From NCBI GenBank assembly GCA_963931925.1, contig OZ007569.1, positions 72,344,118 through 72,408,117 on the forward strand: a stretch of DNA of 64,000 bases, given 5' to 3'. Shown in pieces: positions 17,796 through 50,690 of the stretch. Position numbers and translations under genes: made by a program. The stretch comes from Onchidella celtica (Eukaryota; Mollusca; Gastropoda; Systellommatophora; Onchidiidae). The notes beneath the pieces were generated by a model, which saw only the letters and a list, made by a program, of their open reading frames with translations, had not been told where the DNA came from and ran no database searches. Each line of letters starts with the position of its first letter. Position 1 is the first letter of the stretch.

Positions 17796-18921
17796 TGTCA
17801 CGAGTGGGTGAGCGGGAATCAATAGTTACGGGGGAAGGGGGTAGAGTAAAGTTAACCCACGGCCCACGGGTAATGAAATGCGTGCATGTTGTGAGTGGGG
17901 GGTCTGCATGAGGCGAGAGCGCTGTACTACTATCACTGCAAGTTAGAAGGTCCCAGGGGACGGACGTGAATGAGAACAGTCGGGAGATTGTGACAGTGTT
18001 TTCCAGTGATGACTGGTAGGTGGAACGATGATTGATAATTATGATGATTGATGTATTATATTCGCCTATGACCGTGATGTAAATAAGTATATGTGAGGAA
18101 TGTGGAAGTCCTTGATACTGTATATAGCAATGTGCGCCATGAGCGATAGATGGAAGTTAGGTTCGTGGATTTGTAGCGAGAGTGAGTAGGGTGTAATACG
18201 GTGGAGGTGTGTTACCGTAGGATGTTTGGTGAGTGGAATGTGAACTATTGTGTGTACGCTTCATGAGTTGTAATGAGGGGTGAAGTGAATAGAAATGGTA
18301 TGGTATTATACCAATGTAATGTTATTTTTGTAGGTGCCGGGGTCGGACCGAAGAGCCGCCTACGGTGAGCACAGGGGATAGGCCAGCATAGGGCCGAAGG
18401 CTACGCATAGGCCAGTGGAGGGACGCTGTCGTGTAGGACAGTCGCAGCACATGAGTCGTGGCAGTCTGGCCACAGACAGGGATGTATATATGATTGTAAT
18501 GTGCTATTAAGATGTACTACTGTGCGATTGAGATACTCATGTGAATTGAATTATTAACGTGCTATGGCCATGTGAGGTGCTATAGGAGGCTAAGGTGTTA
18601 TTGCCATAGGGAGGCGCTATTGAGAGACTGTGGTGCGAAAGAATACTAGGGTGTTATTAAGACCCTGAGTGGAGAGGCTGAGGCCGAAGTGTCTTTAGAG
18701 TAATTACCGGGTTGTGGACCCGAGGAAGTGTGCTTACGGGAAGAAGGCCGTGGACGCCAGTTAAATTAAGTACTATAATGTATGTCATTGCATTTCTATC
18801 TTTATCTTATGTTTAATAAATGTGTGAGTCTGATGGGTTGTTCTGTTAAGTGTTATACGTGTTCGTTCGTGATTGTTGTCCTGTTATAATTATTGCATCT
18901 CCCAGTCTGGGATTTGTGACA
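17796..18921 (+). repeat. E1 5' LTR
   Basis: 1126 bp, TGTCACGAG...TTTGTGACA. AATAAA at 18815-18820 would be the polyadenylation signal at the R/U5 boundary. The first 170 or so bases of U3 differ from those of E2 and E3, while the rest is clearly related. Confidence 0.95.
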
Positions 18922-18922
18922 C

Positions 18923-18936
18923 TGGGGGCTCGTCCG
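18923..18936 (+). promoter_or_regulatory. E1 primer binding site, tRNA-Pro type
   Basis: TGGGGGCTCGTCCG starts one base after the 5' LTR. It equals the first 14 bases of the tRNA-Pro primer site known from murine leukaemia virus, so minus-strand synthesis is probably primed by tRNA-Pro. Confidence 0.85.
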
Positions 18937-19913
18937 TTGTGACATTCGTCGGTTTAGTTACCTGTGGTCATTTTGACATTGTGTATTCGTCATATCTAGT
19001 TGTTTTTCTGTTGTGCTAGGAATTCGTACTGTTGTCTTTTGTTCGTGGAATGAATGGAAATTTCATGAGGGTATAATTTAGGTATATTTATGAATATGTA
19101 TTGATGCATGTATTGCTATAAATATGTACTAATGTGTGATTGAATTTTCACAGAGAGAGAGTGTGTGTGCCAGCCTGAGGAGTCAAGCAGCCAGAGCTCC
19201 GGCATACGTCAAGTTAAATAAAACGCTGAGTGAAAGTTAAGTAAAATTCAAAAATTTTGTGCCCTGGATTGAGGGCTGTCTTTTTCCCTGTTTTTGCTGT
19301 TTTTGTTGTCGTTATAGATTATACGGGCGGTGGCGCGGGTTTGCTGTGGTGAACTTGCTTTGTCCTCTTCGGGAGGTGGGCTAAACTTGGAGCCACGCTC
19401 ATCACAGTGAACAGTTCTTTAGGGCTTTGTTATTGTTTAGTTTTAGCGTCGATATCTTCTCTGTTCTGCAGGAAGACGTATTCTCCTGCCCCCTTTCTTA
19501 CCTATCTGTAGATACGTTCTTTTTTTCAGACTCTGTTCTTGTTCGTACCTTGTAGTGTAATCGGCGTAGTTAGGTTGCATTTTTGTTCCCATTACAGTTT
19601 TTTTTAGAAGCTTTGTCCTAGTCTGGTTCGTTGTCTTTGATGTCCTTGTGGTCCTTCTTCTGAATTTCTCCATTCTTGTCTTTTCTATTCTCTTTTGTTA
19701 TTTAATAGTGCTATACATTTTATGAACGTAGAATTAGTTAGAGAGTAGGCTCTGGAATGTTCAGTTAGGTGTGTTTCTGAATAGCATTTGAAAATAGGCT
19801 TGTTATTGTAGTGGCATAATTTCAGGTCTCGGGATACGTCGGGTATAATAAGCTTATAGTAAGTACATAGACAGTTTATTGTATTTTAAAGTGTATAATA
19901 ATAAATCCGTGAA
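18937..19913 (+). other. E1 untranslated leader
   Basis: About 980 bases between primer site and gag start, with no open frame. It is colinear with the E2 leader (26801-27769) and the E3 leader (48627-49563). It probably holds packaging and translation-control signals, but none can be pinpointed. Confidence 0.6.
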
Positions 19914-20849
19914 ATGGCGGAGCTCCAGCAACTAATGAAGTTAGGGACGGAACTTGGTCTTGAAGGCGTAGAGCTACTCGGCTGGATTAAAGAGCAGCAG
20001 GCGGAATTGCGCGATGAGCGTGCTAAGGATAGAGAGCGAGAAAAAGAGGCTTAAGAGCGGCAGAGAGAAAAAGAGGCTCAAGAGCGGCAGAGAGAAAATG
20101 AGGCTCAAGAGCGGCAGAGAGAAAATGAGGCTCAAGAGCGGCAGAGAGAAAAAGAGGCTCAAGAGCGGCAGACAGAAAAAGAGGCTCAAGAGCGGCACCA
20201 GGAAAGGGAGTTAAAGTTAAGGGAGATAGACGCGCGAGTAAGAATCGCGGAGTTAGAGAGCAAGAAGAATGCGCCAACAGAAACAGTTGAGCGGCAGGCA
20301 CAAAATAAAGGGGGTGTTCGGATTAAGCTGCCTACGTTCGACGACCGGAAGGACGATATAGACGCCTTCCTTTACAGGTTCGAACTTAATGCACAACTGC
20401 AATGGGGGCACAATAAGCAATTATGGTCCACGTACCTGGCGTCTCTATTGCAGGGTCGAGCGTTGACCTACTTTAAAGAGCTACAGCGCGAAGACGTACA
20501 TGATTACGATAAGCTGAAGTCTTTGCTGCTTCGCCGATTTGCGCGTACGGAGGAATATTTCCGGGAGCAGTTTAGGCGAGCACGTGCGGATACCAGGGAG
20601 GACTTTGCTGCCTTCGTCGCGAGATTGACAGAATATTTCACGAACTGGGTGGACTTGTCGCATGTTGGCGCAGATTTTGCAAAACTGAAGGACCTAATGA
20701 TCCGTGACCAGCTGTACGCGTCGTGCCATAAAGATTTAGTGGCTTTTCTAAAAGAAAACGAACCCGCGACGGTGCAGGAGGCGTCAAAGTTGGCGGAAAC
20801 CAGTCGCGAGGGCGTACGTACAGGATGCTGGTTACGTCGCCGTGGTTGA
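19914..20849 (+). pseudogene. E1 gag, broken by a stop codon and a frameshift
   Basis: ATG at 19914 (MAELQQLMKLG) aligns with the starts of E2 and E3 gag. Codon 47 is TAA (20052-20054) where the repeat units have CAA, a single C-to-T change. A coiled-coil region built of 9-residue units (AQERQREKE) follows, then the retrotransposon gag domain (KLPTFDDRKDDIDAFLYRF, LQGRALTYFKEL). Near 20796 about 26 bases found in E2 are missing, which throws the frame out before the zinc knuckles. Gag would form the virus-like particle. Confidence 0.88.
20052..20213 (+). repeat. 27-bp coding minisatellite in E1 gag
   Basis: Unit caagagcggcagagagaaaa plus agaggct repeats at 20052, 20079, 20106, 20133, 20160 and 20187 (last copy diverged), coding a 9-residue charged repeat. 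E2 and E3 have different repeat arrangements here. The repeated-leucine frame on the opposite strand is an artefact of this array. Confidence 0.9.
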
Positions 20850-23805
20850 GGGGTCGCCGACAGGATATGGTAGAGACAGGTCGCGTCAGCGTGGTGCCTA
20901 TAATGGGCAAACCCAGGGCCCACGTAGGGGGTATTGCCAATCACCGGCATATGGAGCCGGTAAGTTTGACCGAACAGGAGGGCTAGGTCGCGGTAATGGC
21001 CGAGGGCGGTGTGTAACCTTTGCCGATGATCGACGGCATAGGGATTTTAGTTCCGGTCGCGAGGGGTCACGGGGACCCAGGTCTAGCGGAGCACAGGGAG
21101 CGGAATGTTGGACTTGCGGACGCGTAGGTCATTTTTCACGGGATTGTAGGACCGCGAATTGTTGGAACTGCGGAAGAGCAGGTCACATCAGGGTAAATTG
21201 CCCTGCAGGTAGGATAGCGGCGAACGTGGATGGCAATCACGGTAGCTCCACTCCATGTTCCCCTAATAAATTTCATCATGCGGCCGCATGTGTTACATCG
21301 GACAACGGAGGCGGACAGTATTCTAAGTGTCCCAGTTGTGAGAAGTTATTATCTTCCGGTGTTTTACCTTGTGGGAGAAAGATCCCCGTTATAAATTCAT
21401 GTCATACAGGAGGTGGTCTTAGGGTTTATCCGGGGTTTGTTAGGGACGAACCGGTCTCGGTTTTACGGGATACAGGATCTACCGTTGTGAGAGTGCATAG
21501 GGACTGCATTCGGGATTCACAGCTTACAGGTGAGACTGTCCCATGCATACAATTTTCAGGGGCCATTGAGAAATTACCCATGGCAAAGATAGTGATAGAT
21601 ACGCCTTTCCTTAGCGGGGAAGTCGAAGCAGTCGTTGGTTTTTTTCCAGGCGCCCAGCTCATCATTGGTAATGTGTCTCGGGTAGTTTCCCCTTCCGAGG
21701 AGAATGTGCAGGCATGGTCACAATCAAAAGGTATTGACTTTTGTGCCGCAGTCGAGACACGTCGACAGGTAAGTGATAAGAGTAAGATTAGATCTTTGGC
21801 AACGCCAGCGGTCAACCTGGATATCACACCAGAGCGCTTGGCGAGATTACAAAAGGAGGATCCATCATTGAGTCCATGTTTTGGGGAGGCGCGAATTGAG
21901 AAAACGAGGAAATATAAGAACGGGTCGTCTTCCTTTGTTATCCAGGTGGGCATTCTGTTCCGTAAGTATGTCACGGTGGCTTCCATTTTAAAGCAGGTCG
22001 TTGTGCCAGCGTTGCTAATTGCAACAGTATTGCATTTGGCACATGATGTCCCATTAGCGGGCCATATGGGGATAGCTAGAACCAAAGAAAGGGTTCTTAA
22101 GAATTTTTATTGGCCATCCGTCCACAGAGATGTACGATTGTATTGTAAGACGTGCAGTGCGTGCCAAAAGACGACGCATAAGGGTCGTACACCCCAGGCT
22201 CCTCTTCAAAAGATCCCCACGGTTTCGGAACCGTTTAAAAAGGTTTCGATAGACCTTGTTGGCCCCATTCACCCAGCTACCGATAGGAGGAATCGATTTT
22301 TTTTAACGGTCATATGTAATGCTACGAGATGGCCAGAGGCGGTTCCTCTTCGGACCATAACGTCTGAGGCAGTCGCGGAAGCGCTGTTTGGAATTTTCGC
22401 TAGGGTGGGAATTCCGGAACAGATTTTATCTGATAGGGGTGCGCAATTTACTTCGGAAATGATGAAGGAATTGTTTCGCTTATTTAGCATACAACCCATC
22501 ACTACCACCCCTTATCATCTGCAGGCTAATGGCATGTGCGAAAGATTGAACTCGACGCTAAAGTCGATGCTGCGTAAGGTAGCTGCTGATCGCCCTAAAG
22601 ATTGGGATAGATATATCCCTGCAGTATTATTCGCGTATAGGGAGGTACGGCAGGAGTCAACGGGATTCTCACCTTTTGAAATGATGTATGGTCGTAGTCC
22701 TAGGGGTCCAACCGATGTTCTTCGGGACATGATGACGTCGCCATCATCGGGAGACGAGGAGCAAATTTCAGTGTTTCAGTACCTTGTTGATTTAAGAGAA
22801 AGATTATCTTCAGCGCGCACTATAGCAGAAGAAGCTTCTAGTATCGCTTCAAAAAGAGCAAAAGACTATAAAGATAGAGGATCCAAACTGAGAATTTTTA
22901 AGCCAGGAGACAAGGTTCTATTGTTATTACCTACGGACCATAATAAGTTACTGATGACATGGAAAGGTCCTTATGTTATTGAGCGAGTTGTTTCGAAGGT
23001 AGATTACGCTATCCACATTGATGGATCAATTAAGCTTTTCCATGTTAATATGCTACAGAGATTTTATGAGAGACCAGAGTATCTGTGTGCACAGACGAAA
23101 CCAGAGGAGAGTGTCTTCTCTATTGCTTGTACGGGGGTCGTAGACCAGTTAGACAGTGACGTAAGCGACACCGAGGCGCAGGAAGAGTTACAAATTCAAT
23201 TGCCGGAGTTAACTCCAACACAAGGTTACAGGGACGTAAAATTTAACCCTGACCTTACGAGTTCAATGAGTACGGAACTTAAGACCCTGTTAGCGTCATT
23301 CCCAGATGTTATTACAGATTTGCCGGGTCGTACTACGGTGATCCAGCACCAAATAAAGTTGACTTCGGATAAGCCAGTATCTCTTAGACCTTATCCGCTG
23401 CGTTTTTCTTCCAGAGAGAGAGTTATAAAAGAAGTTGAGTCAATGTTGAAGTTAGATGTAATAGAACCATCAACATCGCCGTATTCATCACCCATCGTCC
23501 TCGTGAAAAAACTTGATGGATCGGTGCGGTTCTGTATTGATTTTCGAAAATTGAACACTATTACGGTAGGCGATAGGGAGCCTATTCCATTTCAGGAGGA
23601 ACTAATAGCTTCATTGGCCGGGTCCAAGTGGTTTTCCAAGAAAGATTTAACGAAAGGTTATTGGGAAATCCCTCTTGCTGATGAGTCTAAACAATACACG
23701 GCTTTCCAAACGCCCATTGGATTATTCCAATTTAAGGTCATGCCATTTGGGTTGGTAAACGACGTTTGCACGACTAATGAGACTGGTATTAAAGGACATA
23801 CCTAA
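20850..23805 (+). pseudogene. E1 pol: zinc knuckles, protease, intact integrase, truncated RT
   Basis: One long frame. Two CCHC knuckles come first (CWTCGRVGHFSRDC, CWNCGRAGHIRVNC), then a protease-like VSVLRDTGSTV. The integrase follows: an HHCC zinc module (LAHDVPLAGHMGIARTKE to CKTCSACQ) and a D,D-35-E core with Asp at 22252-22254, Asp at 22432-22434 and Glu at 22540-22542, 35 residues between the last two. A GPY/F-type module (LMTWKGPYVIERV) comes next. Then the RT: SPIVLVKKLDGSVRFCIDF, FSKKDLTKGYWEIP, FKVMPFGLVN. Integrase before RT is the Gmr1 order, not the usual Ty3/Gypsy order. At about 23762 seven bases present in E2 are missing and the frame runs into a stop at 23805. FSKKDL has Lys where E2 has Ile, next to the motif A aspartate. 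Confidence 0.9.
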
Positions 23806-24199
23806 TGTCGTGTCATTCTTTGACGATATAGCGTGTCATACGTCGACATGGTCTGAACATATTCAGACACTAACAGTAATTTGTAAACGATTACGTCATT
23901 TTGGGTTAACTGCTAAACCCGCAAAGATGGATTTGGCATGTCCAGAGATAGTATTCTTAGGACATATCGTGGGTAGAGGTGTTCAGAGACCTGAAGTAAC
24001 AAAAATTGACAAATTAGTAGGGTTGCAAATCCCTAAAACAAAGAAACAAGTCAGAAGCTTGGTGGGAATTTTGAATTATTACAGAAAGTTCATTCCAAAT
24101 TTTTCCTCCTTGTCATCTTCTCTTACTGACCTTACTAAGAAGGGACAACCCGATAAGGTCCAGTGGACGTCAGACAGCATATATTTGATAAATTGGTGA
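23777..24199 (+). pseudogene. E1 RT palm/thumb fragment
   Basis: After the 7-bp deletion the RT continues in a new frame: the catalytic box VVSFFDDIA, then HFGLTAKPAKMDLACPEI, FLGHIVGRGVQ and LVGILNYYRKFIP. It ends near 24175, where E1 lacks about 8 bases present in E2 and shows local rearrangement, shifting the frame again. Confidence 0.88.
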
Positions 24200-24612
24200 C
24201 AGCATTATCATCGTCACCCATTCTGATATTACCCGATTTTCGATCTAAATTTATCCTCAGAACAGATGCGTCGGACTCTGGTGTCGGCGCTTGTCTTCTA
24301 CAGGAGAAGAACGAATGTTTCCATCCTGTATGTTATGTCAGTAGGAAGTTATTGCAGAGAGAAAGAAAGTATTCTATGATAGAGCGGGAGTGTCTTGCCA
24401 TTGTGTGGTCCGTCCAGAAATTAGGACGTTATCTCATGGGACGAGAATTCTGTATCCAGACAGACCACAAGCCACTAACGTTTTTATCAAGGAATCGTTC
24501 GTCCAGCCCACGCTTGTCTAGATGGGCATTGGCTTTGCAGCCGTATACCTTCGTTATTCAACCAATTCCAGGAACCAGCAATCATATCGCCGACTACCTT
24601 AGTCGAGCCTAG
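24163..24612 (+). pseudogene. E1 RNase H fragment
   Basis: Ty3-type RNase H: FILRTDASDSGVGACLLQ (first Asp), YSMIERECLAIVWSVQKLGR (Glu), FCIQTDHKPLTFLS (second Asp), ending in NHIADYLSRA. The domain itself is intact but out of frame with the RT before it. It is the last domain of pol; no integrase follows. Confidence 0.9.
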
Positions 24613-24966
24613 GGGAAGAGTTCAGGAGCTTATACATCGGAGGACAGGAACATTGACAGGATCTGTGTGAACGAGTCGTCGACTTTAAAATATTGACATT
24701 ATAAATATTATATGAAGAATGGTTGATAGGTTCATTGGTTTTGATTCTGTGTTAGGTATTGTGTTTAGTTAGCTATTGATGATGTGATACATATATGCAT
24801 AGTGCAGGGCATATGGATCCCCATATTTTCCCCTGATTTCGGTATTATATGTGCTATAGGCATTGGTAGGTCATTTTTATGTAGGTATTGCTCACGCTCA
24901 CTCGTTGACAATCATCTTGATGCGATTTGAAATTAATTGCATTAATTTTTTTGGGGTGGGGGATGA
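24613..24966 (+). other. E1 3' untranslated region with polypurine tract
   Basis: About 340 noncoding bases, ending in GGGGTGGGGGATGA (24953-24966) directly before the 3' LTR. This is the polypurine tract for plus-strand priming. E2 (32289-32302) and E3 (44790-44803, complement) have the same tract. Confidence 0.8.
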
Positions 24967-25674
24967 TGTCACGAGCGGGTGAGCGGGGATCAATAGTTAC
25001 GGGGGAAGGGGGTAGAGTAAAGTTAACCCACGGCCCACGGGTAATGAAAAGCGTGCATGTTGTGAGTGGGGGGTCTGCATGAGGCGAGAGCGCTGTACTA
25101 CTATCACTGCAAGTTAGAAGGTCCCAGGGGACGGACGTGAATGAGAACAGTCGGGAGATTGTGACAGTGTTTTCCAGTGATGACTGGTAGGTGGAACGAT
25201 GATTGATAATTATGATGATTGATGTATTATATTCGCCTATGACCGTGATGTAAATAAGTATATGTGAGGAATGTGGAAGTCCTTGATACTGTATATAGCA
25301 ATGTGCGCCATGAGCGATAGATGGAAGTTAGGTTCGTGGATTTGTAGCGAGAGTGAGTAGGGTGTAATACGGTGGAGGTGTGTTACCGTAGGATGTTTGG
25401 TGAGTGGAATGTGAACTATTGTGTGTACGCTTCATGAGTTGTAATGAGGGGTGAAGTGAATAGAAATGGTATGGTATTATACCAATGTAATGTTATTTTT
25501 GTAGGTGCCGGGGTCGGGCCGAAGAGCCGCCTACGGTGAGCACAGGAGATAGGCCAGCATAGGGCCGAAGGCTACGCATAGGCCAGTGGAGGGACGCTGT
25601 CGTGTAGGACAGTCGCAGCACATGAGTCGTGGCAGTCTGGCCACAGACAGGGATGTATATATGATTGTAATGTG
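24967..25674 (+). repeat. E1 3' LTR, left piece
   Basis: Matches 17796-18501 of the 5' LTR with a handful of substitutions. It is cut at 25674 by the E2 insertion; the last five bases ATGTG are the E2 target duplication. Confidence 0.95.
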
Positions 25675-26786
25675 TGTCACGAGTGGAGTGAGCGATAGTT
25701 AATAATTACGGGGAGGGGAAAGGAGGAGAGTAAAATTAACGCACGGAGACAAGTGAGAAGTCGTGCATGTCATGAGCGGGGGGTCTGAATGAGACGAAAG
25801 CGCTGCATTACTATGACTGCAAGTTAGAGGGTCCTACTGAACGGACGTTAGGAAGAGCCCAGGGGGCGGACATAAGTGAAAGCAGTCGGGAGACGGATGA
25901 GTGTTGTTCCAGTGATGACTGGTAGGTAGGACGTTGATTGATAATTATGATTGATGTATTATATGATATTCGTCTATTACCATGATGTAAATAAGTATAT
26001 GTGAGGAATGTGGAAGTCCTTGATATTGGATATAGTAATGTGCGCCATGAGCGATAGATGAAAGTGAGTTCATGGATTTGTAGCACGAGTGAGGATTGTG
26101 TACTCCGATGGAGATGTGTTACCGTAAGATGTGTGGTGAGTGAAAGGTGAACTATTATGTGTACGCTTCATGAGTTGTAAGGAGAGGTGGAGTGAATAGA
26201 AATGGAAGGGTGTTATACCAATGTAATGTTATTCTTGTAGGTGTCGGGGACGGGCCGAAGAGCCACCTCGATGAACACAAGTGATAGGCCAGCATAGGGC
26301 CGGAGGCCATACATAGGCCAGAAGTGAGACTGTCGGTGCAGGACAGTAGAGGCACATAAAGTCGTGGCAGTCAGGCCACGGACAGGGACGTAGATATGAG
26401 AGTGAATGAGATATTATAGTATTGCCATGTTGATGGGCAAGTGAACTGATAAGGTGGATGCCAATAGGAAGGTGATAGTGAGAGACTGCGGTGCCAGTGA
26501 ATCATTAATGTACTATTAAGACCCTGAGGAGAGAGGCTGAGGCCGAAGTGCCTTTAGGAAGTAACTACCGGATCGTGGATCCGAGGAAGAGTGCATGTGA
26601 GAGTAAGGCCGTTGTACGGCAGTGAAGTTCAATAATATAATGTATGTAATTGCGCTATTATCTGTATAATTTATGTATAATAAATGTGTGAGTCTGATGG
26701 GTTGTTCTGTTAAGTGTTAAACTTGTTCGTTCGTGATTGTTGTCCTGTCATAACTTATTACATCTCCCAGTCTGGGATTTGTGACA
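25675..26786 (+). repeat. E2 5' LTR
   Basis: 1112 bp, TGTCACGAGTGG...TTTGTGACA; AATAAA at 26679-26684. Short conserved open frames on its minus strand recur in every LTR copy and are not genes. Confidence 0.95.
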
Positions 26787-26787
26787 G

Positions 26788-26800
26788 TGGGGGCTCGTCC
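26788..26800 (+). promoter_or_regulatory. E2 primer binding site, tRNA-Pro type
   Basis: TGGGGGCTCGTCC one base after the LTR; 13 bases match the tRNA-Pro primer site. Confidence 0.85.
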
Positions 26801-27769
26801 ATTTTCGTAGTAGTTAGTTAGTAGGTATTAGTTAGTGGGCATTTGTTACTTCAGTCTTTGTCCACGTAGTACTTATCTTGTGGTAGGAATTTGTGCTGTC
26901 TTTGTTCGTTGAATGAATGGAAATTTCATGATATGATTTATGTATATTGATGAATATGTATTGATGCATGTATTGCTATGAATAGGTATTAATGTGTATT
27001 TAAACTTTCCAGAGTGTGTGCGTGCAGCCTGAGGAGACAAGCAGCCAGAGCTCCGATTAAGGGGAGGACTTAAACTCATAAGGCTGAAAGTTAAGTAAAA
27101 GTCAAAATTTTTGTGCCCTGGATTGAGGGCTGTCTTTTCATCTGTCTTTTTCCGCTGTTTTTCTGTTTTCGTTGTAATTGATTATATGGGCGGTGGCGCG
27201 GGTTTGCTGTGTTGAACTTAGTTTATCCTTTTAAAAAGGTGTGGTAAACTTTGGAACTTCGTTCATCACAGTGAACAGTTCTGTAGGGACCTGTAATATT
27301 GTTTAGTTGTAGCGTCGATATCTTCCTCGTTGTTTTAGGAAGACGTTTCTCTTGTCCCTCTCTTACCTGTCTGTAAATACGTTCTTTTTTTTCAGACTCT
27401 GTTCTTGTTCGTACCTTGTAGTGTAATCGGCGTATTTAGGTTGCATTTTTTTTCCATTATATTTTCTTTTGTAGGTCTTTGTCTTAGTCTGGTTCGTTGT
27501 CCTTGACGTAGGCTACTTGTGGTCCTTCTACTGAATTTTCTCATTCTTATCTTTTCCTTTCGTTTTGTTATTTAATAGTGCTAGACATTTTATAAACATA
27601 CAATTAGTTAGAGAGAGTAGGCTGTAGAATGTTTAGTTAGGGGTGTTTCTGAATTGTATTTGGGTTTTGTGATATCTGGTGTGATCTCAGGTCTCTGGTC
27701 GTGTCGTTGGTGATCATACCGACAGGTTAGGCGTTTTCATAATATACACCGTAACCATAAGTCTGTGAA
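26801..27769 (+). other. E2 untranslated leader
   Basis: Colinear with the E1 leader, no open frame. Confidence 0.6.
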
Positions 27770-30700
27770 ATGGCGGAACTCCAACAACTAATGAAGTTGG
27801 GTAAGGAACTTGGCCTTGAGGGAGAAGAGCTACGCGGCTGGATTAAAGAACAGCAGGCGGATTTGCGCGATGAGCGTGCTGAGGATAGAGAGAGAGAAAA
27901 AGAGGCTCAAGAGCGACAGAGAGAAGAGGAGAGGGAGTTTAAGTTAAAGGAGTTAGAGGCTCAGCAGCAGGAAAGGGAGTTTAAGCAACAGGAAAGAGAG
28001 GCTAAGGCTCAGCAGCAGGAAAGGGAGTTTAAGTTAAAGGAGTTAGAAGATAAGCAGCAGGAGAGGGAGGCGCGAGTAAGAATCGCGGAGTTGGAAATCA
28101 AAAAGAATACGCCAACAGAAACAGTTGAGCGGCAGGTACACAATAAAGGTGGCGTTAGGATTAAGCTCCCTACGTTCGACGACCGGAAGGACGACATAGA
28201 CGCCTTCCTTTACAGGTTCGAACTGAACGCACAATTGCAATGGGGGGAAGATAAGGAATTATGGTCCACGTACCTGGCGTCGCTATTGCAGGGGCGAGCG
28301 TTAACCTACTTTAAAGAGCTACAGCGCGAAGACGTGCGAGATTACGATAAGCTGAAGGCTTTGCTGCTTCGCCGATTTGCGCGCACCGAGGAATATTTCC
28401 GGGAGCAGTTTAGGCGAGCACGAGCGGATACCAGGGAGGACTTTGCTGCCTTCGTCGCGAGATTGACGGAATATTTCGCGAACTGGGTAGACTTGGCGCA
28501 TGTTGGCGCGGATTTTTCTAAATTGAAAGACCTAATGATCCGTGACCAGCTGTACGCGTCGTGCCATAAAGATCTGGTGGCTTTTCTCAAAGAAAACGAA
28601 CCCGCGACGGTGCAGGAGGCGTCTAAGTTGGCGGAAGCATACCGTACGGCACATCCGTCCAAACCAGTGGCGAGGGCGTACGTCCAAGATGCTGGGTACG
28701 TCGCCGTTGTCGATGGGTCGCCGACAGGGCATAAAGACAGGTCGCGTCAGCGTGGTGCCTATAGTGGGCAAAGCCAGGGGCAGCGTAGGGGCTATCACCA
28801 ATCACCGGCATATGGATCCGGTAAGTTTGACCGAGCAGGAGGGCTAGGTCGCGGTAATGGCCGGGGGCGATTTGTGACCTTTGCCGATGACCGACGGCAT
28901 AGGGACTTTAGTTCCGGTCGCGATGGGTCACGGGGACCCAGGCCTAGTGCAGCACAGGGAGCGGAGTGTTGGACTTGCGGACGCGTGGGTCACTTTTCAC
29001 GCGAGTGTGGGGCCGCGAAGTGTTGGAACTGCGGAAGAGCAGATCACATTTGCGTGAATTGCCCTGCAGGTAGGATAGCGGCGAACGTGGACAGTAGCTC
29101 CAGTCCATGTTCTCCTAATAAATTTCATCATGCGGCTGCGTGTGTTACATCGGACAACGGAGGCGGACAGTATTCTAAGTGTCCCAGTTGTGAGAAGTTA
29201 TTATCTTCCGGTGTTTTACCTTGTGGGAGAAAGATCCCCGTTATAAATTCATGTCATACAGGAGGTGGTCTTAGGGTTTATCCGGGGTTTGTTGGGGACG
29301 AACCGGTCTCGGTTTTACGAGATACAGGATCTACCGTTGTGGGGGTACATAGGGACTGCATTCGGGAGTCACAGCTTACAGGAGAGACTGTCCCGTGCAT
29401 CCAATTTTCGGGGGCCATTGAGAAATTACCGATGGCGAGAATAGTGATAGATACACCTTTCCTTAGCGGGGAAGTCGAGGCAGTCGTTGGTTGTTTTCCG
29501 GGCGCCCAGCTCATCATTGGGAATGTATCACGGGTAGTTTCCCCTTCCGAGGAGAATGTGCAGGCATGGTCTCAATCAAAAGGTATTGACTTTTGTGCCG
29601 CAGTCGAGACACGTCGACAAGTAGCTGATAAAGCTAAGATTAGACCTTTGGCAACGCCAGCGGTCAACCTAGATATCACGCCAGAGCGCTTGGCGAGATT
29701 GCAAAGGGAGGATCCATCATTAAACCCATGTTTTGGGGAAGCGCGAACCGAGAAAACGAGGAAATACAAAAACGGGTCATCTTCTTTTTTTGTCCAGGGG
29801 GGCATTCTGTTCCGTATGTACGTAACAGTGGCTTCTGTTCAAAACCAGGTCGTCGTGCCACGGTCGTTAATTGCTAAAGTATTGCGTCTGGCCCATGATG
29901 TTCCATTAGCGGATCATATGGGAAGTGCTAGAACCAAGGAGAGAGTTCTGAAAGATTTTTATTGGCCATCGATACATAGAGATGTACGGCTGTATTGTAA
30001 GACGTGCAGTGCGTGCCAAAAGACGACGCATAAGGGTCGTACACCCCAGGCTCCTCTTCAAAAGATCCCCACGGTCTCGGAACCGTTTAAAAAGGTTTCG
30101 ATAGACCTTGTTGATTTAAGAGAAAGATTATCTTCAGCGCGCACTATAGCAGAAGAAGCTTCTAGTATCGCTTCGAAAAGAGCAAAAGACTATAAAGATA
30201 GAGGTTCCAAATTGAGAATTTTTAATCCAGGGGACAAGGTCCTGTTGTTGTTACCTACGGACCATAATAAGTTATTGATGACGTGGAAAGGTCCTTATGT
30301 TATTGAGCGAGTTGTTTCAAAGGTAGATTACGCTATCCACATTGACGGAACGAGTAAGGTTTTCCATGTTAATATGCTACAGAGATTTTATGAGAGACCA
30401 CAGTATCTGTGTGCACAGACAAAACCAGAGGAGAGTGTCTTCTCTATTGCTTGTACGGGGGTCGTAGACCAGTTGGACTGTGACGTAAGCGACACCGAGG
30501 CGCAGGAAGAGTTACAAATTCAATTGCCGGAGTTAACTCCGACACAAGGTTACAGGGACGTAAAAATTAACCCTGACCTTACGAGTTCAAGGAGTAGGGA
30601 ACTTAAGACCCTGTTGGCATCGTTCCCGGATGTTATTACGGATTTGCCGGGTCGCACTGCCGTGATCCAGCACCAAATAAAGTTGACTTCGGATAAGCCA

Positions 30701-31948
30701 GTATTTCTTAGACCTTATCCGCTGCCGTTTTCTTCGAGAGATAGAGTTGTAGAGGAAGTTGAGTCAATGTTGAAGTTAGATGTGATAGAGCCATCAACAT
30801 CGCCGTATTCATCACCCATCGTCCTCGTGAAAAAACTTGATGGATCGGTGCGGTTCTGTATTGATTTTCGAAGATTGAACACTATTACGGTAGGCGATAG
30901 GGAGCCTATTCCGTTTCAGGAGGAATTAATAGCTTCATTGGCCGGGTCCACGTGGTTTTCCAAGATAGATTTAACGAAAGGCTACTGGGAAATCCCCCTT
31001 ACTGAGGAGTCTAAACAATACACGGCGTTCCAAACGCCCATTGGATTATTCCAATTTAAGGTCATGCCATTTGGATTGGTAAACGCGCCAGCGACGTTTG
31101 CACGATTAATGAGACTATTGTTGAAGAACATACCTAATGTCGTGTCATTCTTTGACGATATAGCATGTCATACGTCGACATGGTCTGATCATATTCAGAC
31201 ACTAACAGTAATTTTTGAACGATTACGTCATTTTGGGTTAACTGCTAAACCCGCAAAGATGGATTTGGCATGTCCAGAGATAGTATTCTTAGGACATATC
31301 GTGGGTAGAGGTGTTCAGAGGCCTGAAGGAACAAAAATTGACAAATTAGTAGGGTTGCAAATCCCAAAAACAAAGAAACAAGTCAGAAGCTTAGTGGGAA
31401 TTTTAAATTATTACAGAAAGTTCATTCCAAATTTTTCCTCCTTGTCATCTTCTCTTACTGACCTTACTAAGAAGGGACAACCCGATAAGGTCCAGTGGAC
31501 GTCTGAGTGTCAGACAGCATTTGATAATTTGGTGACAGCATTATCATCGTCACCCATTCTGATATTACCCGATTTTCGATCTAATTTTATCCTCAGAACG
31601 GATGCGTCGGACTCTGGTGTCGGCGCTTGTCTTCTACAGGAGAAGAACGAATGTCTCCATCCTGTATGTTATGTCAGTAGGAAGTTATTGCAGAGAGAAA
31701 GAAAGTATTCTGTGATAGAGCGTGAGTGTCTTGCCATTGTGTGGTCCGTCCAGAAATTAGGACGCTATCTCATGGGACGAGACTTTTGTATCCAGACAGA
31801 CCACAAGCCACTAACGTTTTTGTCGAAGAATCGTTCGTCCAGCCCACGCTTGTCTAGATGGGCATTGGCTTTGCAGCCGTACACCTTCGTTATTCAACCA
31901 ATTCCAGGAACCAGCAATCATATCGCCGACTACCTTAGTCGAGCCTAG
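27770..31948 (+). CDS. E2 Gag-Pol polyprotein (1392 aa) lacking the integrase catalytic core
   Basis: A single open frame from ATG 27770 with gag and pol fused. Residues 1-115 form a charged coiled coil with QQEREFKLKELE-type repeats. About 125-300 is the gag domain. CCHC knuckles lie near 400 (CWTCGRVGHFSREC) and 418 (CWNCGRADHICVNC). Protease-like LRDTGSTVV lies near 518. The integrase zinc module spans about 705-750. SIDLV, holding the first catalytic Asp, is followed at once near 779 by DLRERLSS, so 176 residues seen in E1, including the second Asp and the Glu, are absent without loss of frame. The GPY/F module is near 836. RT: VRFCIDFRRLN near 1025, FSKIDLTKGYWEIP near 1062, SFFDDIA near 1125. 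RNase H: RTDASDSG near 1275 to QTDHKPL near 1342; end YLSRA. Gag, protease, RT and RNase H look intact. Confidence 0.93.
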   Translation: MAELQQLMKLGKELGLEGEELRGWIKEQQADLRDERAEDREREKEAQERQREEEREFKLKELEAQQQEREFKQQEREAKAQQQEREFKLKELEDKQQEREARVRIAELEIKKNTPTETVERQVHNKGGVRIKLPTFDDRKDDIDAFLYRFELNAQLQWGEDKELWSTYLASLLQGRALTYFKELQREDVRDYDKLKALLLRRFARTEEYFREQFRRARADTREDFAAFVARLTEYFANWVDLAHVGADFSKLKDLMIRDQLYASCHKDLVAFLKENEPATVQEASKLAEAYRTAHPSKPVARAYVQDAGYVAVVDGSPTGHKDRSRQRGAYSGQSQGQRRGYHQSPAYGSGKFDRAGGLGRGNGRGRFVTFADDRRHRDFSSGRDGSRGPRPSAAQGAECWTCGRVGHFSRECGAAKCWNCGRADHICVNCPAGRIAANVDSSSSPCSPNKFHHAAACVTSDNGGGQYSKCPSCEKLLSSGVLPCGRKIPVINSCHTGGGLRVYPGFVGDEPVSVLRDTGSTVVGVHRDCIRESQLTGETVPCIQFSGAIEKLPMARIVIDTPFLSGEVEAVVGCFPGAQLIIGNVSRVVSPSEENVQAWSQSKGIDFCAAVETRRQVADKAKIRPLATPAVNLDITPERLARLQREDPSLNPCFGEARTEKTRKYKNGSSSFFVQGGILFRMYVTVASVQNQVVVPRSLIAKVLRLAHDVPLADHMGSARTKERVLKDFYWPSIHRDVRLYCKTCSACQKTTHKGRTPQAPLQKIPTVSEPFKKVSIDLVDLRERLSSARTIAEEASSIASKRAKDYKDRGSKLRIFNPGDKVLLLLPTDHNKLLMTWKGPYVIERVVSKVDYAIHIDGTSKVFHVNMLQRFYERPQYLCAQTKPEESVFSIACTGVVDQLDCDVSDTEAQEELQIQLPELTPTQGYRDVKINPDLTSSRSRELKTLLASFPDVITDLPGRTAVIQHQIKLTSDKPVFLRPYPLPFSSRDRVVEEVESMLKLDVIEPSTSPYSSPIVLVKKLDGSVRFCIDFRRLNTITVGDREPIPFQEELIASLAGSTWFSKIDLTKGYWEIPLTEESKQYTAFQTPIGLFQFKVMPFGLVNAPATFARLMRLLLKNIPNVVSFFDDIACHTSTWSDHIQTLTVIFERLRHFGLTAKPAKMDLACPEIVFLGHIVGRGVQRPEGTKIDKLVGLQIPKTKKQVRSLVGILNYYRKFIPNFSSLSSSLTDLTKKGQPDKVQWTSECQTAFDNLVTALSSSPILILPDFRSNFILRTDASDSGVGACLLQEKNECLHPVCYVSRKLLQRERKYSVIERECLAIVWSVQKLGRYLMGRDFCIQTDHKPLTFLSKNRSSSPRLSRWALALQPYTFVIQPIPGTSNHIADYLSRA

Positions 31949-32302
31949 GGGAAGAGTTCAGGAGCTTATACATCGGAGGACAGGAACATTGACATGATCT
32001 GTGTGAATGAGTCGACTTTAAAATATTGACATTATAAATATGATATGAAGAATGGTTGATAGGTTGATTGGTTTTTGATTCTGTATTACATGTTATGTTT
32101 TAGTTTACTATTGATGATGTGATACATATATGCATAATGCATGGCATATTGATCCCCATATTTTCCCCTGATTCCGGTATTTTATGTGCTGGGGGCATTG
32201 GTAGGTCATTTTTAATGTAGGTATTGCTCAGGCTCACTCGTTGACAGTCATCTTGATGCGATTTGAAATTAATTGCATTAATTTTTTTGGGGTGGGGGAT
32301 GA
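31949..32302 (+). other. E2 3' untranslated region and polypurine tract
   Basis: Noncoding, colinear with E1; ends in GGGGTGGGGGATGA at 32289-32302. Confidence 0.8.
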
Positions 32303-33414
32303 TGTCACGAGTGGAGTGAGCGATAGTTAATAATTACGGGGAGGGGAAAGGAGGAGAGTAAAATTAACGCACGGAGACAAGTGAGAAGTCGTGCATGTCA
32401 TGAGCGGGGGGTCTGAATGAGACGAAAGCGCTGCATTACTATGACTGCAAGTTAGAGGGTCCTACTGAACGGACGTTAGGAAGAGCCCAGGGGGCGGACA
32501 TAAGTGAAAGCAGTCGGGAGACGGATGAGTGTTGTTCCAGTGATGACTGGTAGGTAGGACGTTGATTGATAATTATGATTGATGTATTATATGATATTCG
32601 TCTATTACCATGATGTAAATAAGTATATGTGAGGAATGTGGAAGTCCTTGATATTGGATATAGTAATGTGCGCCATGAGCGATAGATGAAAGTGAGTTCA
32701 TGGATTTGTAGCACGAGTGAGGATTGTGTACTCCGATGGAGATGTGTTACCGTAAGATGTGTGGTGAGTGAAAGGTGAACTATTATGTGTACGCTTCATG
32801 AGTTGTAAGGAGAGGTGGAGTGAATAGAAATGGAAGGGTGTTATACCAATGTAATGTTATTCTTGTAGGTGTCGGGGACGGGCCGAAGAGCCACCTCGAT
32901 GAACACAAGTGATAGGCCAGCATAGGGCCGGAGGCCATACATAGGCCAGAAGTGAGACTGTCGGTGCAGGACAGTAGAGGCACATAAAGTCGTGGCAGTC
33001 AGGCCACGGACAGGGACGTAGATATGAGAGTGAATGAGATATTATAGTATTGCCATGTTGATGGGCAAGTGAACTGATAAGGTGGATGCCAATAGGAAGG
33101 TGATAGTGAGAGACTGCGGTGCCAGTGAATCATTAATGTACTATTAAGACCCTGAGGGGAGAGGCTGAGGCCGAAGTGCCTTTAGGAAGTAACTACCGGA
33201 TCGTGGATCCGAGGAAGAGTGCATGTGAGAGTAAGGCCGTTGTACGGCAGTGAAGTTCAATAATATAATGTATGTAATTGCGCTATTATCTGTATAATTT
33301 ATGTATAATAAATGTGTGAGTCTGATGGGTTGTTCTGTTAAGTGTTAAACTTGTTCGTTCGTGATTGTTGTCCTGTCATAACTTATTACATCTCCCAGTC
33401 TGGGATTTGTGACA
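32303..33414 (+). repeat. E2 3' LTR
   Basis: Same as the 5' LTR apart from one change in CCTGAGGGGAGAGG (33156-33169). Confidence 0.95.
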
Positions 33415-33856
33415 ATGTGCTATTAAGATGTACTACTGTGACACGGATGTACTACTGTGCGATTGAGATACTCATGTGAATTGAATTATTAACGTGCTAT
33501 GGCCATGTGAGGTGCTATAGGAGGCTAAGGTGTTATTGCCATAGGGAGGCGCTATTGAGAGACTGTGGTGCGAAAGAATACTAGGGTGTTATTAAGACCC
33601 TGAGTGGAGAGGCTGAGGCCGAAGTGTCTTTAGAGTAATTACCGGGTTGTGGACCCGAGGAAGTGTGCTTACGGGAAGAAGGCCGTGGACGGCAGTTAAA
33701 TTAAGTACTATAATGTATGTCATTGCATTTCTATCTTTATCTTACGTTTAATAAATGTGTGAGTCTGATGGGTTGTTCTGTTAAGTGTTATACGTGTTCG
33801 TTCGTGATTGTTGTCCTGTTATAATTATTGCATCTCCCAGTCTGGGATTTGTGACA
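33415..33856 (+). repeat. E1 3' LTR, right piece
   Basis: Continues the E1 LTR after E2. A 19-bp local duplication around gatgtactactgtg (about 33430-33465) is absent from the 5' LTR. Confidence 0.93.
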
Positions 33857-43585: not shown

Positions 43586-43675
43586 CTGAAATAAAATGAT
43601 GTTAAATTTCAAAGGGTTGAAAATGCAGATGTTATAAATTCAAGTTTTAACCCATGCAATTGCAATGGCCCTGTG

Positions 43676-44789
43676 TGTCACAAATCCCAGACTGGGAGAT
43701 GTAATAAGTTATGACAGGACAACAATCACGAACGAACAAGTTTAACACTTAACAGAACAACCCATCAGACTCACACATTTATTAAACATAATTATACATA
43801 TAATAGCGCAATTACATACAGGATATTATTGAAATGACTTGCCGTACAACGGCCTTATTCTCACACACACTCTCCCTCGGATCCACAATCCGGTAGTTAC
43901 TCCTAAAGGCACTTCGGCCTCAGCCTCTCCCCTCAGGGTCTTAATAGCACCTTAGTAATTCACTGGCACCACAGTCTCTCCATATCACCGCCTATTGTCA
44001 TGCAACTTATCAGTTCACTTGCCCATCAACATGGCAATACTATGGTATCTCATTCACTCTCATATCTACGTCCCTGTCCGTGGCCTGACTGCCACGACTT
44101 TAGGTGCCTCTACTGTCCTACACCGACAGTCTCACTTCTGGCCTATGTATGGCCTCCGGCCCTATGCTGGCCTATCACTTGTGCTCATCGAGGTGGCTCT
44201 TCGGCCCCGTCCCCGACACCTACAAGAATAACATTACATTGGTATAACACCCTTCCATTCTATTCACTCCACCTCTCCTTACAACTCATGAAGTGTACAC
44301 ATAATAGTTCACCTTTCACTCACCACACATCTTACGGTAACACATCTCCATCGGAGTATACAATACTCACTCGTGCTACAAATCCATGAACTCACTTTCA
44401 TCTATCGCTCATGGCGCACATTGCTATATCCAATATCAAGGACTTCCACATTCCTCACATATACTTATTCACATCATGGTAATAGACGAATATAATATAA
44501 TACATCAATCATAATAATCAATCAACGTTCTACATACCAGTCATTACTGGAAAGACTCTCTCGTTAGTCTTCTCGACTGCTCCCTGTATGTCCGCCCGAT
44601 GGGCTCTTATTCACAGGTCCGCTCCGTAGGACCTTCTAACTTGCAGTGATAGTAATGTAACGCTTTCGTCTCATTCAGACCCCCCACTCATGACATGCAC
44701 GACTTCTCACTTGTCTCCGTGCGTTAATTTTACTCTCCTCCTTTCCCCCCCCCCGTAATTATTAACTATCGCTCACTCCACTCGTGACA
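43676..44789 (-). repeat. E3 3' LTR
   Basis: 1114 bp. AATAAA on the minus strand at 43783-43778. Its edge is 91 bases from the TDP1 exon acceptor. Confidence 0.95.
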
Positions 44790-45139
44790 TCATCCCCCAC
44801 CCCAAAAAAATTAATGCAATTAATTTCAAATCGCATCAAGATGACTGTCAACGAGTGAGCCTGAGCAATACCTACATTAAAAATGACCTACCAATGCCCC
44901 CAGCACATAAAATACCGGAATCAGGGGAAAATATGGGGATCAATATGCCATGCATTATGCATATATGTATCACATCATCAATAGCTAACTAAACTTAATA
45001 CTTAATACAGAATCAAAAACCAATCAACCTATCAACCATTCTTCATATATTTATAATGTCACTATTTTAAAGTCGACTCATTCACACAAATCCTGTCAAT
45101 GTTCCTGTCCTCCGATGTATAAGCTCCTGAACTCTTCCC
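44790..45139 (-). other. E3 3' untranslated region with polypurine tract
   Basis: Tract at 44803-44790 (complement of tcatcccccacccc); the rest is noncoding and colinear with E1 and E2. Confidence 0.8.
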
Positions 45140-46096
45140 CTAGGCTCGACTAAGGTAGTCGGCGATATGATTGCTGGTTCCTGGAATTGGTTGAATAACG
45201 AAGGTGTACGGCTGCAAAGCCAATGCCCATCTAGACAAGCGTGGGCTGGACGAACGATTCTTCGACAAAAACGTTAGTGGCTTGTGGTCTGTCTGGATAC
45301 AAAAGTCTCGTCCCATGAGATAACGTCCTAATTTCTGGACGGACCACACAATGGCAAGACACTCACGCTCTATCACAGAATACTTTCTTTCTCTCTGCAA
45401 TAACTTCCTACTGACATAACATACAGGATGGAAACATTCGTTCTTCTCCTGTAGAAGACAAGCGCCGACACCAGAGTCCGACGCATCCGTTCTGAGGATA
45501 AAATTAGATCGAAAATCGGGTAATATCAGAATGGGTGACGATGATAATGCTGTCACCAATTTATCAAATGCTGTCTGACATTCAGACGTCCACTGGACCT
45601 TATCGGGTTGTCCCTTCTTAGTAAGGTCAGTAAGAGAAGATGACAAGGAGGAAAAATTTGGAATGAACTTTCTGTAATAATTTAAAATTCCCACTAAGCT
45701 TCTGACTTGTTTCTTTGTTTTTGGGATTTGCAACCCTAATAATTTGTCAATTTTTGTTCCTTCAGGCCTCTGAACACCTCTACCCACGATATGTCCCAAG
45801 AATACTATCTCTGGACATGCCAAATCCATCTTTGCGGGTTTAGCAGTTAACCCAAAATGACGTAATCGTTCAAAAATTACCGTTAGTGTCTGAATATGAT
45901 CAGACCATGTCGACGTATGACATGCTATATCGTCAAAGAATGACACGACATTAGGTATGTCCTTTAACACCAGTATGAGAACCCCGGTACTCTGGTCTCT
46001 CACAAAATCTCCGTAGCATATTAACGTGGAAAACCTTACTCGTTCCATCAATGTGGATAGCGTAATATACCCTCGAAACAACTTGCTCAATAACAT
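45140..46096 (-). pseudogene. E3 RT C-terminal part and RNase H
   Basis: From about 45970 downward it reads VLKDIPNVVSFFDDIACH, the thumb and connection, then a complete RNase H (FILRTDASDSG, ERECLAIVWSVQ, FCIQTDHKPL, IADYLSRA). The first 40 or so codons of the frame are an out-of-frame reading of the upstream GPY/F region. About 700 bases of RT present in E1 and E2, including the motif A aspartate, are missing, and the junction near 45975-45992 carries a short unrelated filler. Confidence 0.88.
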
Positions 46097-48626: not shown

Positions 48627-49563
48627 TTCACAGACTTATGGTTACGTATGTACTATAAAAACGGCTAACCTGTCGGTATGATCACTAACGACACGACCAG
48701 AGACCTGAGATCACACCAGATATCACAAAACCCAAATACAATTCAGAAACACCCCTAACTAAACATTCTACAGCCTACTCTCTCTAACTAATTCTATGTT
48801 TATAAAATGTCTAGCACTATTAAATAACAAAACGAAAGGAAAAGATAAGAATGAGAAAATTCAGTAAAAGGACCACACGTACGTCAAGGACAACGAACCA
48901 GACTAAGACAAAGACCTTACAAAAGAAAATATAATGGAAAAAAATGCAACCTAAATACGCCGATTACACTACAAGGTACGAACAAGAACAGAGTCTGAAA
49001 AAAAAGAACGTATTTACAGATAGGGAGGAAGGAGGGACAAGAGAATACGTCTTCCTAAAACAACGAGGAAGATAGAACGCTACAACTAAACAATAACAAA
49101 GCCCTAAAGACTGTTCACCGTGGTGAACGAAGTTCCAAGTTTCCCACACCTTTTTTTAAAAGGATAAACTAAGTTCACCACAGCAAACCCGCGCCACCGC
49201 CCGTATAATCAATTACAACGAAAACAGCAAAAACAGGGAAAAAGACAGATGAAAAGACAGCCCTCAATCCAGGGTACAAAATTTTCACTTAACTTTCAAT
49301 TTTTGAGTTTAACTCCTCCCCTTAATCGGAGCTCTGGCCGCTTGACTCCTCAGGCTGGCACACACACTCTGCAGAAATTTAAGTACACATTAGTACATAT
49401 TTATAGCAATACATGCATCAATACATATTCATAAATATACATAAATCATATCATGAAATTTCCATTCATCCCACGAACAAAGACAACAGCACGAATTCCT
49501 AGCACAACAGAAAAACAAGTAGATATAACAAATACACAATGTCAAAATGACCACAGGTAAACA
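48627..49563 (-). other. E3 untranslated leader
   Basis: Colinear with the E1 and E2 leaders; no open frame of note. Confidence 0.6.
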
Positions 49564-49576
49564 GGACGAGCCCCCA
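49564..49576 (-). promoter_or_regulatory. E3 primer binding site, tRNA-Pro type
   Basis: Complement reads TGGGGGCTCGTCC, one base inside the 5' LTR edge. Confidence 0.85.
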
Positions 49577-49577
49577 C

Positions 49578-50690
49578 TGTCACAAATCCCAGACTGGGAG
49601 ATGTAATAAGTTATGACAGGACAACAATCACGAACGAACAAGTTTAACACTTAACAGAACAACCCATCAGACTCACACATTTATTAAACATAATTATACA
49701 TATAATAGCGCAATTACATACAGGATATTATTGAAATGACTTGCCGTACAACGGCCTTATTCTCACACACACTCTCCCTCGGATCCACAATCCGGTAGTT
49801 ACTCCTAAAGGCACTTCGGCCTCAGCCTCTCCCCTCAGGGTCTTAATAGCACCTTAGTAATTCACTGGCACCACAGTCTCTCCATATCACCGCCTATTGT
49901 CATGCAACTTATCAGTTCACTTGCCCATCAACATGGCAATACTATGGTATCTCATTCACTCTCATATCTACGTCCCTGTCCGTGGCCTGACTGCCACGAC
50001 TTTAGGTGCCTCTACTGTCCTACACCGACAGTCTCACTTCTGGCCTATGTATGGCCTCCGGCCCTATGCTGGCCTATCACTTGTGCTCATCGAGGTGGCT
50101 CTTCGGCCCCGTCCCCGACACCTACAAGAATAACATTACATTGGTATAACACCCTTCCATTCTATTCACTCCACCTCTCCTTACAACTCATGAAGTGTAC
50201 ACATAATAGTTCACCTTTCACTCACCACACATCTTACGGTAACACATCTCCATCGGAGTATACAATACTCACTCGTGCTACAAATCCATGAACTCACTTC
50301 CATCTATCGCTCATGGCGCACATTGCTATATCCAATATCAAGGACTTCCACATTCCTCACATATACTTATTCACATCATGGTAATAGACGAATATAATAT
50401 AATACATCAATCATAATAATCAATCAACGTTCTACATACCAGTCATTACTGGAAAGACTCTCTCGTTAGTCTTCTCGACTGCTCCCTGTATGTCCGCCCG
50501 ATGGGCTCTTATTCACAGGTCCGCTCCGTAGGACCTTCTAACTTGCAGTGATAGTAATGTAACGCTTTCGTCTCATTCAGACCCCCCACTCATGACATGC
50601 ACGACTTCTCACTTGTCTCCGTGCGTTAATTTTACTCTCCTCCTTTCCCCCCCCCGTAATTATTAACTATCGCTCACTCCACTCGTGACA
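49578..50690 (-). repeat. E3 5' LTR
   Basis: 1113 bp, nearly identical to the left LTR of E3. Confidence 0.95.

What the first reader, a model, noticed from the sequence alone, without database searches (positions are those of the whole stretch)
30096..30122. In-frame loss of the integrase catalytic core, shared at one breakpoint by two recent copies
Seen: compared with E1, both E2 (junction 30105-30113) and E3 (46280-46288, minus) lack exactly 528 bases (22262-22789 in E1 or equivalent). The cut lies between two copies of the 9-mer accttgttg, so 176 codons drop out and the frame stays open. The first catalytic Asp remains; the second Asp and the Glu are gone, while the zinc and GPY/F modules stay. 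Known: DDE integrases need all three acids. Inference: the deletion arose once and its lineage has multiplied at separate loci, so integration must be supplied by another element. This would be a partly autonomous family that keeps Gag, RT and RNase H.
Basis: partly seen in the sequence, partly recalled or inferred. Interest (0 to 1): 0.85.

Follow-up and report, generated by a model that had tools for sequence, protein, structure and literature searches.

The report
Integrase-core-deleted retrotransposon lineage, mobilised in trans
A family of jumping genes in this genome has lost the catalytic centre of its integrase, and usually part of its copying enzyme too, yet has spread to about a thousand places, apparently by borrowing enzymes from intact relatives while still making its own particle protein.

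Summary
In detail: E2 and E3 lack the same 528 bp (176 codons) of E1's integrase, cut between two copies of ACCTTGTTG; the second and third DDE acids are lost. It goes far beyond two copies: the junction occurs at 1,183 places, against 2,312-2,380 that keep the core. Of 20 junction copies read in full, 19 have exact 5-bp target duplications and LTR pairs are 99.7% alike: separate recent insertions. E2 is one of three exceptions, and its RT looks re-acquired from core-present elements. The elements are Gmr1-like. Best reading: a non-autonomous lineage that makes its own Gag-PR-truncated integrase, borrows RT and integrase from co-packaged full elements, and recombines with them. Capsid, and apparently the integrase zinc region, stay constrained after core loss. 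The kind is known (IAP 1Δ1, Quinta); core excision at this scale in a Gmr1-like element is a new variant.

The parts
25675..33414 (+). E2: core-deleted, RT-bearing Gmr1-like LTR element, nested in E1's 3' LTR
   Evidence: LTRs 99.8% alike; 5-bp TSD ATGTG at 25670-25674 and 33415-33419
25675..26786 (+). E2 5' LTR (TGTCAC...GTGACA)
32303..33414 (+). E2 3' LTR
26788..26800 (+). primer-binding-site sequence TGGGGGCTCGTCC (tRNA-Pro type; the tRNA assignment is recalled)
27770..31948 (+). E2 single ORF: Gag (SCAN, CCHC), PR, integrase remnant, RT, RNase H
   Evidence: Pfam (PR only as a weak Asp_protease_2 match)
29855..30028 (+). integrase H2C2 zinc domain kept in E2
   Evidence: Pfam PF17921, E 7e-18
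30105..30113 (+). integrase deletion junction (9-mer ACCTTGTTG) in E2
30114..30397 (+). integrase C-terminal part with GPY motif kept in E2
   Evidence: sequence; Pfam matches below cut-off
30406..31118 (+). RT segment present in E2 but missing from E3 and from 25 of 28 fetched junction loci
   Evidence: alignment; gap table
17796..25674 (+). E1: core-present element (3' LTR continues at 33420-33856 after E2); TSD ATAAT 17791-17795 / 33857-33861
22262..22789 (+). 528 bp of E1 that E2 and E3 lack: integrase core with second Asp and Glu
43676..50690 (-). E3: element lacking both the integrase core and the RT segment; TSD CTGTG 43671-43675 / 50691-50695
46280..46288 (-). integrase deletion junction in E3
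45969..45988 (-). RT deletion junction in E3 with short filler
45951..48626 (-). E3 ORF1: Gag-PR-integrase remnant, 891 aa
45140..46096 (-). E3 ORF2: RT FFDD/thumb part and RNase H, in another frame

Best explanation
E2 and E3 belong to a non-autonomous lineage of a Gmr1-like Ty3/gypsy retrotransposon. An in-frame 528-bp deletion between two 9-bp repeats (inferred: template switching during reverse transcription) removed the integrase catalytic core. Most sampled members also carry a second shared deletion in RT. The elements still encode Gag-PR-truncated integrase and keep LTR ends, PBS and PPT. Full elements in the same cell co-package their RNA and supply RT and integrase, so new copies land with ordinary 5-bp TSDs. 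Co-packaging also gives recombinants, which move the deletions between backgrounds and sometimes restore RT (E2). Shown: the deletions, copy numbers, TSDs, separate sites, mosaicism, constraint. Inferred: co-packaging and supply in trans.
For: 1,183 deleted-junction places against 2,312 (left boundary) and 2,380 (right boundary) core-present places, reversed-pattern controls 0. 19 of 20 fully read junction copies have exact 5-bp TSDs (18, L024); chance about 1e-56 if each matches at 1 in 1024. LTR pairs differ at 59 of 22,066 sites over 20 copies. Flanks of 22 copies differ apart from family LTRs as targets. Candidate helpers: the core is open with strict D, D and E motifs in 17 of 19 core-present copies; core-present copies with long open frames exist. 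E1, E2 and E3 share LTR termini, PBS and PPT. All four combinations of the two deletions exist, including core-present with RT-deleted (L047). Diagnostic-site mosaics. A private capsid clade of 20 of 22 deleted rows (100/99) has pN/pS 0.118 [0.067-0.194], near the 0.113 of 6 core-present copies.
Against: No transcript, particle or new insertion was observed, so supply in trans is inferred. The 20 full copies came from exact matches to the junction 45-mer on C1-C3, which favours young copies. E3 and L023 have core-type left flanks, one clade is rejected on the right flank and for capsid (p-AU 0.014), so recurrence of the deletion in a few copies is not excluded. Constraint measured in deleted copies can be imported by recombination from constrained helpers; for the RNase H part this is likely, since it mixes with core-present rows.
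Confidence: 0.86

Rival explanations
1. The core deletion arose many times independently, because the 9-bp direct repeat is a hot spot for template switching, and the deleted copies are mostly dead ends.
For: The breakpoints lie exactly in a 9-bp direct repeat. E3 and L023 have core-type left flanks; the right flank rejects one clade (p-AU 0.0015). No diagnostic sites lie in the last 100 nt left of the junction, so recombination and recurrence look alike there.
Against: 27 of 29 rows form one left-flank clade, 100/99. 26 of 29 share a second breakpoint with near-identical filler, E3 included. A private capsid clade of 20 of 22 deleted rows has its own branching and 10% synonymous diversity, which dead-end copies would not build.
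Confidence: 0.08
2. The deleted copies spread by segmental or tandem duplication of host DNA, not by retrotransposition.
For: Three junction places lie 6.39 kb apart on C1; L018 is one of them and lacks a TSD. E2 and L024 are alike on both flanks (78-88%).
Against: 19 of 20 have their own TSD. E2 and L024 both sit in LTRs of this family, about 95 nt apart in the aligned target and with different TSDs (ATGTG, ATAGG), so they are two insertions; no other pair among 22 copies is alike on both flanks. The 40 places listed lie on 16 contigs.
Confidence: 0.02
3. The truncated integrase is itself active, or cDNA enters by homologous recombination with existing copies (as integrase-less Ty1 cDNA does; recalled).
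For: The zinc and C-terminal parts remain and show pN/pS under 1.
Against: Two of three catalytic acids are gone. 5-bp TSDs at different targets are, from established knowledge, the mark of integrase strand transfer, not of homologous recombination.
Confidence: 0.03

Closest known systems
Mouse IAP 1Δ1 (passages read in PMC6466679)
   Same: A shared internal deletion leaves an open fusion ORF; [quoted passage not shown]
   Different: IAP is a retrovirus-derived element with a 1.9-kb gag-pol deletion; here the integrase core alone is cut out in frame in a Gmr1-like element, usually together with a second RT deletion.
RLG_Quinta with helper RLG_Cereba in wheat (passages read in PMC11302176)
   Same: A non-autonomous partner keeps Gag, PBS and LTR ends and is proposed to borrow RT and integrase.
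   Different: Quinta lacks coding sequence for RT and integrase and is centromere-specific; here zinc and C-terminal integrase parts remain, and exchange with the helper is visible.
CfERV-Fc1(a) proviruses of canids (passages read in PMC6407205)
   Same: Shared disabling changes spread by co-packaging and trans complementation.
   Different: The common deletion is in env of a gammaretrovirus; 19 proviruses were examined there against 1,183 junction places here.
Gmr1-like Ty3/gypsy elements (passages read in PMC8220671, PMC3587641, PMC4131045)
   Same: Integrase upstream of RT; SCAN domain found in many Gmr elements of frogs.
   Different: The passages read mention no core-deleted sublineage.

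Membership tests
Gmr1-like Ty3/gypsy retrotransposons | integrase domain upstream of RT/RNase H | tested here: met
   Pfam order H2C2, (rve in E1), RVT_1, RNase H in E1/E2; definition from passages of PMC8220671 and PMC3587641
Gmr1-like Ty3/gypsy retrotransposons | Ty3-like integrase | tested here: met
   best match of E1 integrase among solved structures is Ty3, E 5e-27
Gmr1-like Ty3/gypsy retrotransposons | SCAN domain in Gag (common, not universal) | tested here: met
   PF02023 E 2.5e-7 in E2, 4.5e-7 in E3
Gmr1-like Ty3/gypsy retrotransposons | groups with Gmr1 reference elements on an RT tree | not tested
   no reference Gmr1 sequences were fetched
Non-autonomous LTR retrotransposon mobilised in trans | shared disabling deletion at many independent insertion sites | tested here: met
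   1,183 places; TSD in 19 of 20 read
Non-autonomous LTR retrotransposon mobilised in trans | potential helper with matching LTR ends, PBS and PPT in the same genome | tested here: met
   2,312-2,380 core-present places; shared ends, PBS and PPT in E1, E2, E3
Non-autonomous LTR retrotransposon mobilised in trans | demonstrated mobilisation by the helper | not testable with these tools
   needs an experiment

The most novel reading that the evidence does not exclude
The core-less integrase is not debris but a working, non-catalytic integrase subunit: its zinc and C-terminal parts join full integrase in mixed complexes (or serve particle assembly), so the lineage is a specialised Gag-and-accessory-integrase partner that coexists and recombines with its helper. 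This would explain why the zinc region of 20 deleted rows keeps pN/pS 0.28 [0.18-0.44] at 12% synonymous diversity and why a loose HHCC pattern is kept in 21 of 22 deleted copies. Against it: singletons alone give p 0.051 for this region, the C-terminal part is not significant in private variants, and constraint may be imported.
Probability: 0.2. Interest if true: 0.78.

Novelty: new variant of a known kind. Interest (0 to 1): 0.52.

Why it matters
It is a clear, recent case of a mobile element splitting its functions between two interacting lineages, with the helper, the dependent form and both kinds of recombinant in one genome and about 3,500 counted places. It allows a direct test of which integrase parts are selected once catalysis is lost, and of how helper and dependent elements coexist and exchange modules.

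Tried and rejected
Splicing as the source of the 528-bp loss: in the sequence no GT-AG pair can be placed within the 9-bp ambiguity, so it was dropped. Segmental duplication: rejected by TSDs and flanks; a first flank test used a wrong 3' end for L024 and showed no pair alike on both flanks; the corrected test shows one such pair, E2 and L024, explained by two insertions into family LTRs with different TSDs. A core encoded elsewhere inside E2 or E3: none by tblastn (a first try used the wrong frame). AlphaFold2 of the E2 integrase remnant with 26 own sequences: mean pLDDT 35, says nothing. Selection on the RNase H part of double-deleted copies: pairwise pN/pS there is 0.225 and private variants in up to 3 copies give omega 0.60, p 0.024, but I do not claim it, since this part mixes with core-present rows and ORF2 is broken in 7 of 18 double-deleted copies against 3 of 18 for the three-times-longer ORF1 (read; p 0.004 by length, shared descent ignored). 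Private variants in up to 3 copies: Gag omega 0.53 p 9e-5, PR 0.51 p 0.03, integrase zinc part 0.40 p 0.001, C-terminal part 0.66 p 0.16; with singletons alone only Gag is significant (PR p 0.28, zinc part p 0.051, C-terminal p 0.43, RNase H p 0.062). Paper searches without a core-deleted match that I recognised; two searches listed none. TARE1 (passages) was looked at and set aside as autonomous.

Full report
What is there. The window (C3:72344118-72408117 of a 1.14-Gb, 43-contig genome without a name) holds three related LTR elements. E1 (17796-25674, continued at 33420-33856) has TSD ATAAT; E2 (25675-33414) sits inside E1's 3' LTR with TSD ATGTG; E3 (43676-50690, minus) has TSD CTGTG. LTRs begin TGTCAC and end GTGACA; TGGGGGCTCGTCC, a tRNA-Pro-type primer site (assignment recalled), follows the 5' LTR and a purine tract precedes the 3' LTR. 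Pfam order in E2 is SCAN, CCHC, integrase H2C2, RT, RNase H. Integrase before RT is what passages of PMC8220671 and PMC3587641 give as the mark of Gmr1-like elements; SCAN in Gmr elements is noted in PMC4131045 (passages). Gmr1 reference sequences were not compared.

The deletion. E1's integrase aligns with Ty3 and PFV integrases, the three catalytic acids in register (the PFV residues are recalled). E2 and E3 lack 528 bp between two ACCTTGTTG copies, losing the second Asp and the Glu and keeping the zinc and C-terminal parts. No core is encoded elsewhere in E2 or E3.

A second deletion. E3 goes from the equivalent of E2 position 30405 to 31119 with a short filler. This removes the RT fingers and motif A but leaves the FFDD box and RNase H, in another frame. 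The same breakpoint, with near-identical filler, is in 25 of 28 fetched junction loci and in E3; it is absent from L001 (which is E2), L018 and L023. None of seven core-present elements (E1, L029-L034) has it (L031 lacks its left part and L033 has extra DNA there), but L047 does.

Copy numbers. Patterns of 42-45 bases with up to 3 mismatches find 1,183 deleted junctions, 2,312 core-present left boundaries, 2,380 core-present right boundaries and 1,050 RT-deletion junctions; all reversed controls are 0. About one third of the counted copies lack the core. More diverged copies are not counted. Of 38 exact RT-deletion places on C1-C3 below 58.7 Mb, 16 have an exact integrase junction about 310 nt upstream and 1 a core-present boundary; the other 21 were not resolved, as only exact matches are listed.

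They are real insertions. I read 20 junction copies in full, chosen from the 100 exact-match places listed on C1-C3. 19 of 20 have exact 5-bp TSDs (18; L024, with a mutated LTR end). The exception, L018, lies in a tandem array. LTR pairs differ at 59 of 22,066 sites. Among 22 copies (these 20 plus E2 and E3), 400-base flanks show one similarity on a single flank (L009, L027) and one pair alike on both flanks, E2 and L024 (78-88%). Both of these sit in LTRs of this family, about 95 nt apart in the aligned target and with different TSDs (one search had used a wrong 3' end for L024).

History. In the 345 nt left of the junction, 27 of 29 deleted rows form one clade (100/99); E3 and L023 fall among 18 core-present rows; one clade is not rejected (p-AU 0.10). 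In the 292 nt to the right one clade is rejected (p-AU 0.0015), with E2, E3, L018, L023 and L011 in the core-present clade and one core-present row, L039, among deleted rows. L031 gave no left-right pair and was left out of both trees. For capsid 20 of 22 deleted rows form a clade (100/99) apart from L011 and L023; one clade of all 22 is rejected (p-AU 0.014); for the NC-PR stretch 18 of 22 do and one clade is not rejected (p-AU 0.14). The RT of the three RT-bearing deleted copies is not one clade (p-AU 0.003, 10 rows). L047 has the full core and the RT deletion; L048 may be the same, but its 1-kb stretch shows only the second half of the core. So all four combinations of two deletions about 300 nt apart occur, and diagnostic-site painting shows mosaics. 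Recombination with core-present elements is the simplest account, since E3 shares the second breakpoint too; recurrence in E3 or L023 is not excluded.

Selection. In the private capsid clade of 20 deleted rows pN/pS is 0.118 [0.067-0.194] with pS 0.10; in 6 core-present copies it is 0.113. In the integrase zinc region of 20 deleted rows it is 0.28 [0.18-0.44], in the inner 17 0.31 [0.18-0.55], in 6 core-present copies 0.19. A loose HHCC pattern is kept in 21 of 22 deleted copies. ORF1 is full length in 15 of 18 double-deleted copies and ORF2 in 11 of 18 (read; p 0.004 for length). The integrase remnant is open throughout in 26 distinct sequences. So Gag-PR, and apparently the integrase zinc part, were kept by selection after the core was lost. 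Import of constrained sequence by recombination weakens this, least for capsid, which has its own clade. pN/pS is below 1 in the RNase H part too (0.225), which I put down to import.

How it works. From established knowledge 5-bp TSDs need integrase strand transfer, and the deleted copies cannot encode it. Open DDE cores are common in the partner (17 of 19; of the two others, L033 has stops and L036 keeps DRG but not the strict SDRG motif). LTR termini, PBS and PPT match in E1, E2 and E3; in further copies the LTRs end TGGGATTTGTGACA and begin TGTCACGAG except where the script set the start wrongly (L025, L029). Recombinants show that both RNAs meet during reverse transcription (inference). 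Supply in trans within shared particles is the best reading, with the deleted lineage contributing Gag. Because integrase lies before RT here, a core deletion had to be in frame to leave RT translatable at first (inference).

Known or new. Deleted, helper-dependent LTR elements are well known: IAP 1Δ1 (PMC6466679), Quinta/Cereba (PMC11302176), CfERV-Fc1(a) (PMC6407205); I saw passages only. My searches listed no paper that I recognised as describing a core-deleted Gmr1-like family; the library lacks most subscription papers, and I read passages of only a few listed papers. I file it as a new variant of a known kind.

Noticed in passing
genome C1:2610759-2625024, C1:51864573-51893275, C1:93584853-93597672, C4:30046026-30067596: Probable tandem arrays of this element family: boundaries repeat every 7.11, 7.17, 6.39 and 7.18 kb (three core-present, one core-deleted), as expected for LTR-internal units joined by unequal recombination.
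   Followed up: no
L047 (C3:1376800-1377800): A copy with the full integrase core but the RT deletion, the reciprocal recombinant.
   Followed up: partly
window 10228-13176 (-) and 38842-42869 (+): Two LINE-type elements with endonuclease and RT; the first has a DUF6451 match, the second an RNase H.
   Followed up: no
window 3503-4515 and 60602-61830: LTR-like stretches of the same family; no adjoining internal part was looked for closely, probably solo or broken LTRs.
   Followed up: no
L009-L028: LTR length varies from about 800 to 1,330 nt among copies whose own two LTRs are nearly identical, so LTR indels have been propagated.
   Followed up: no
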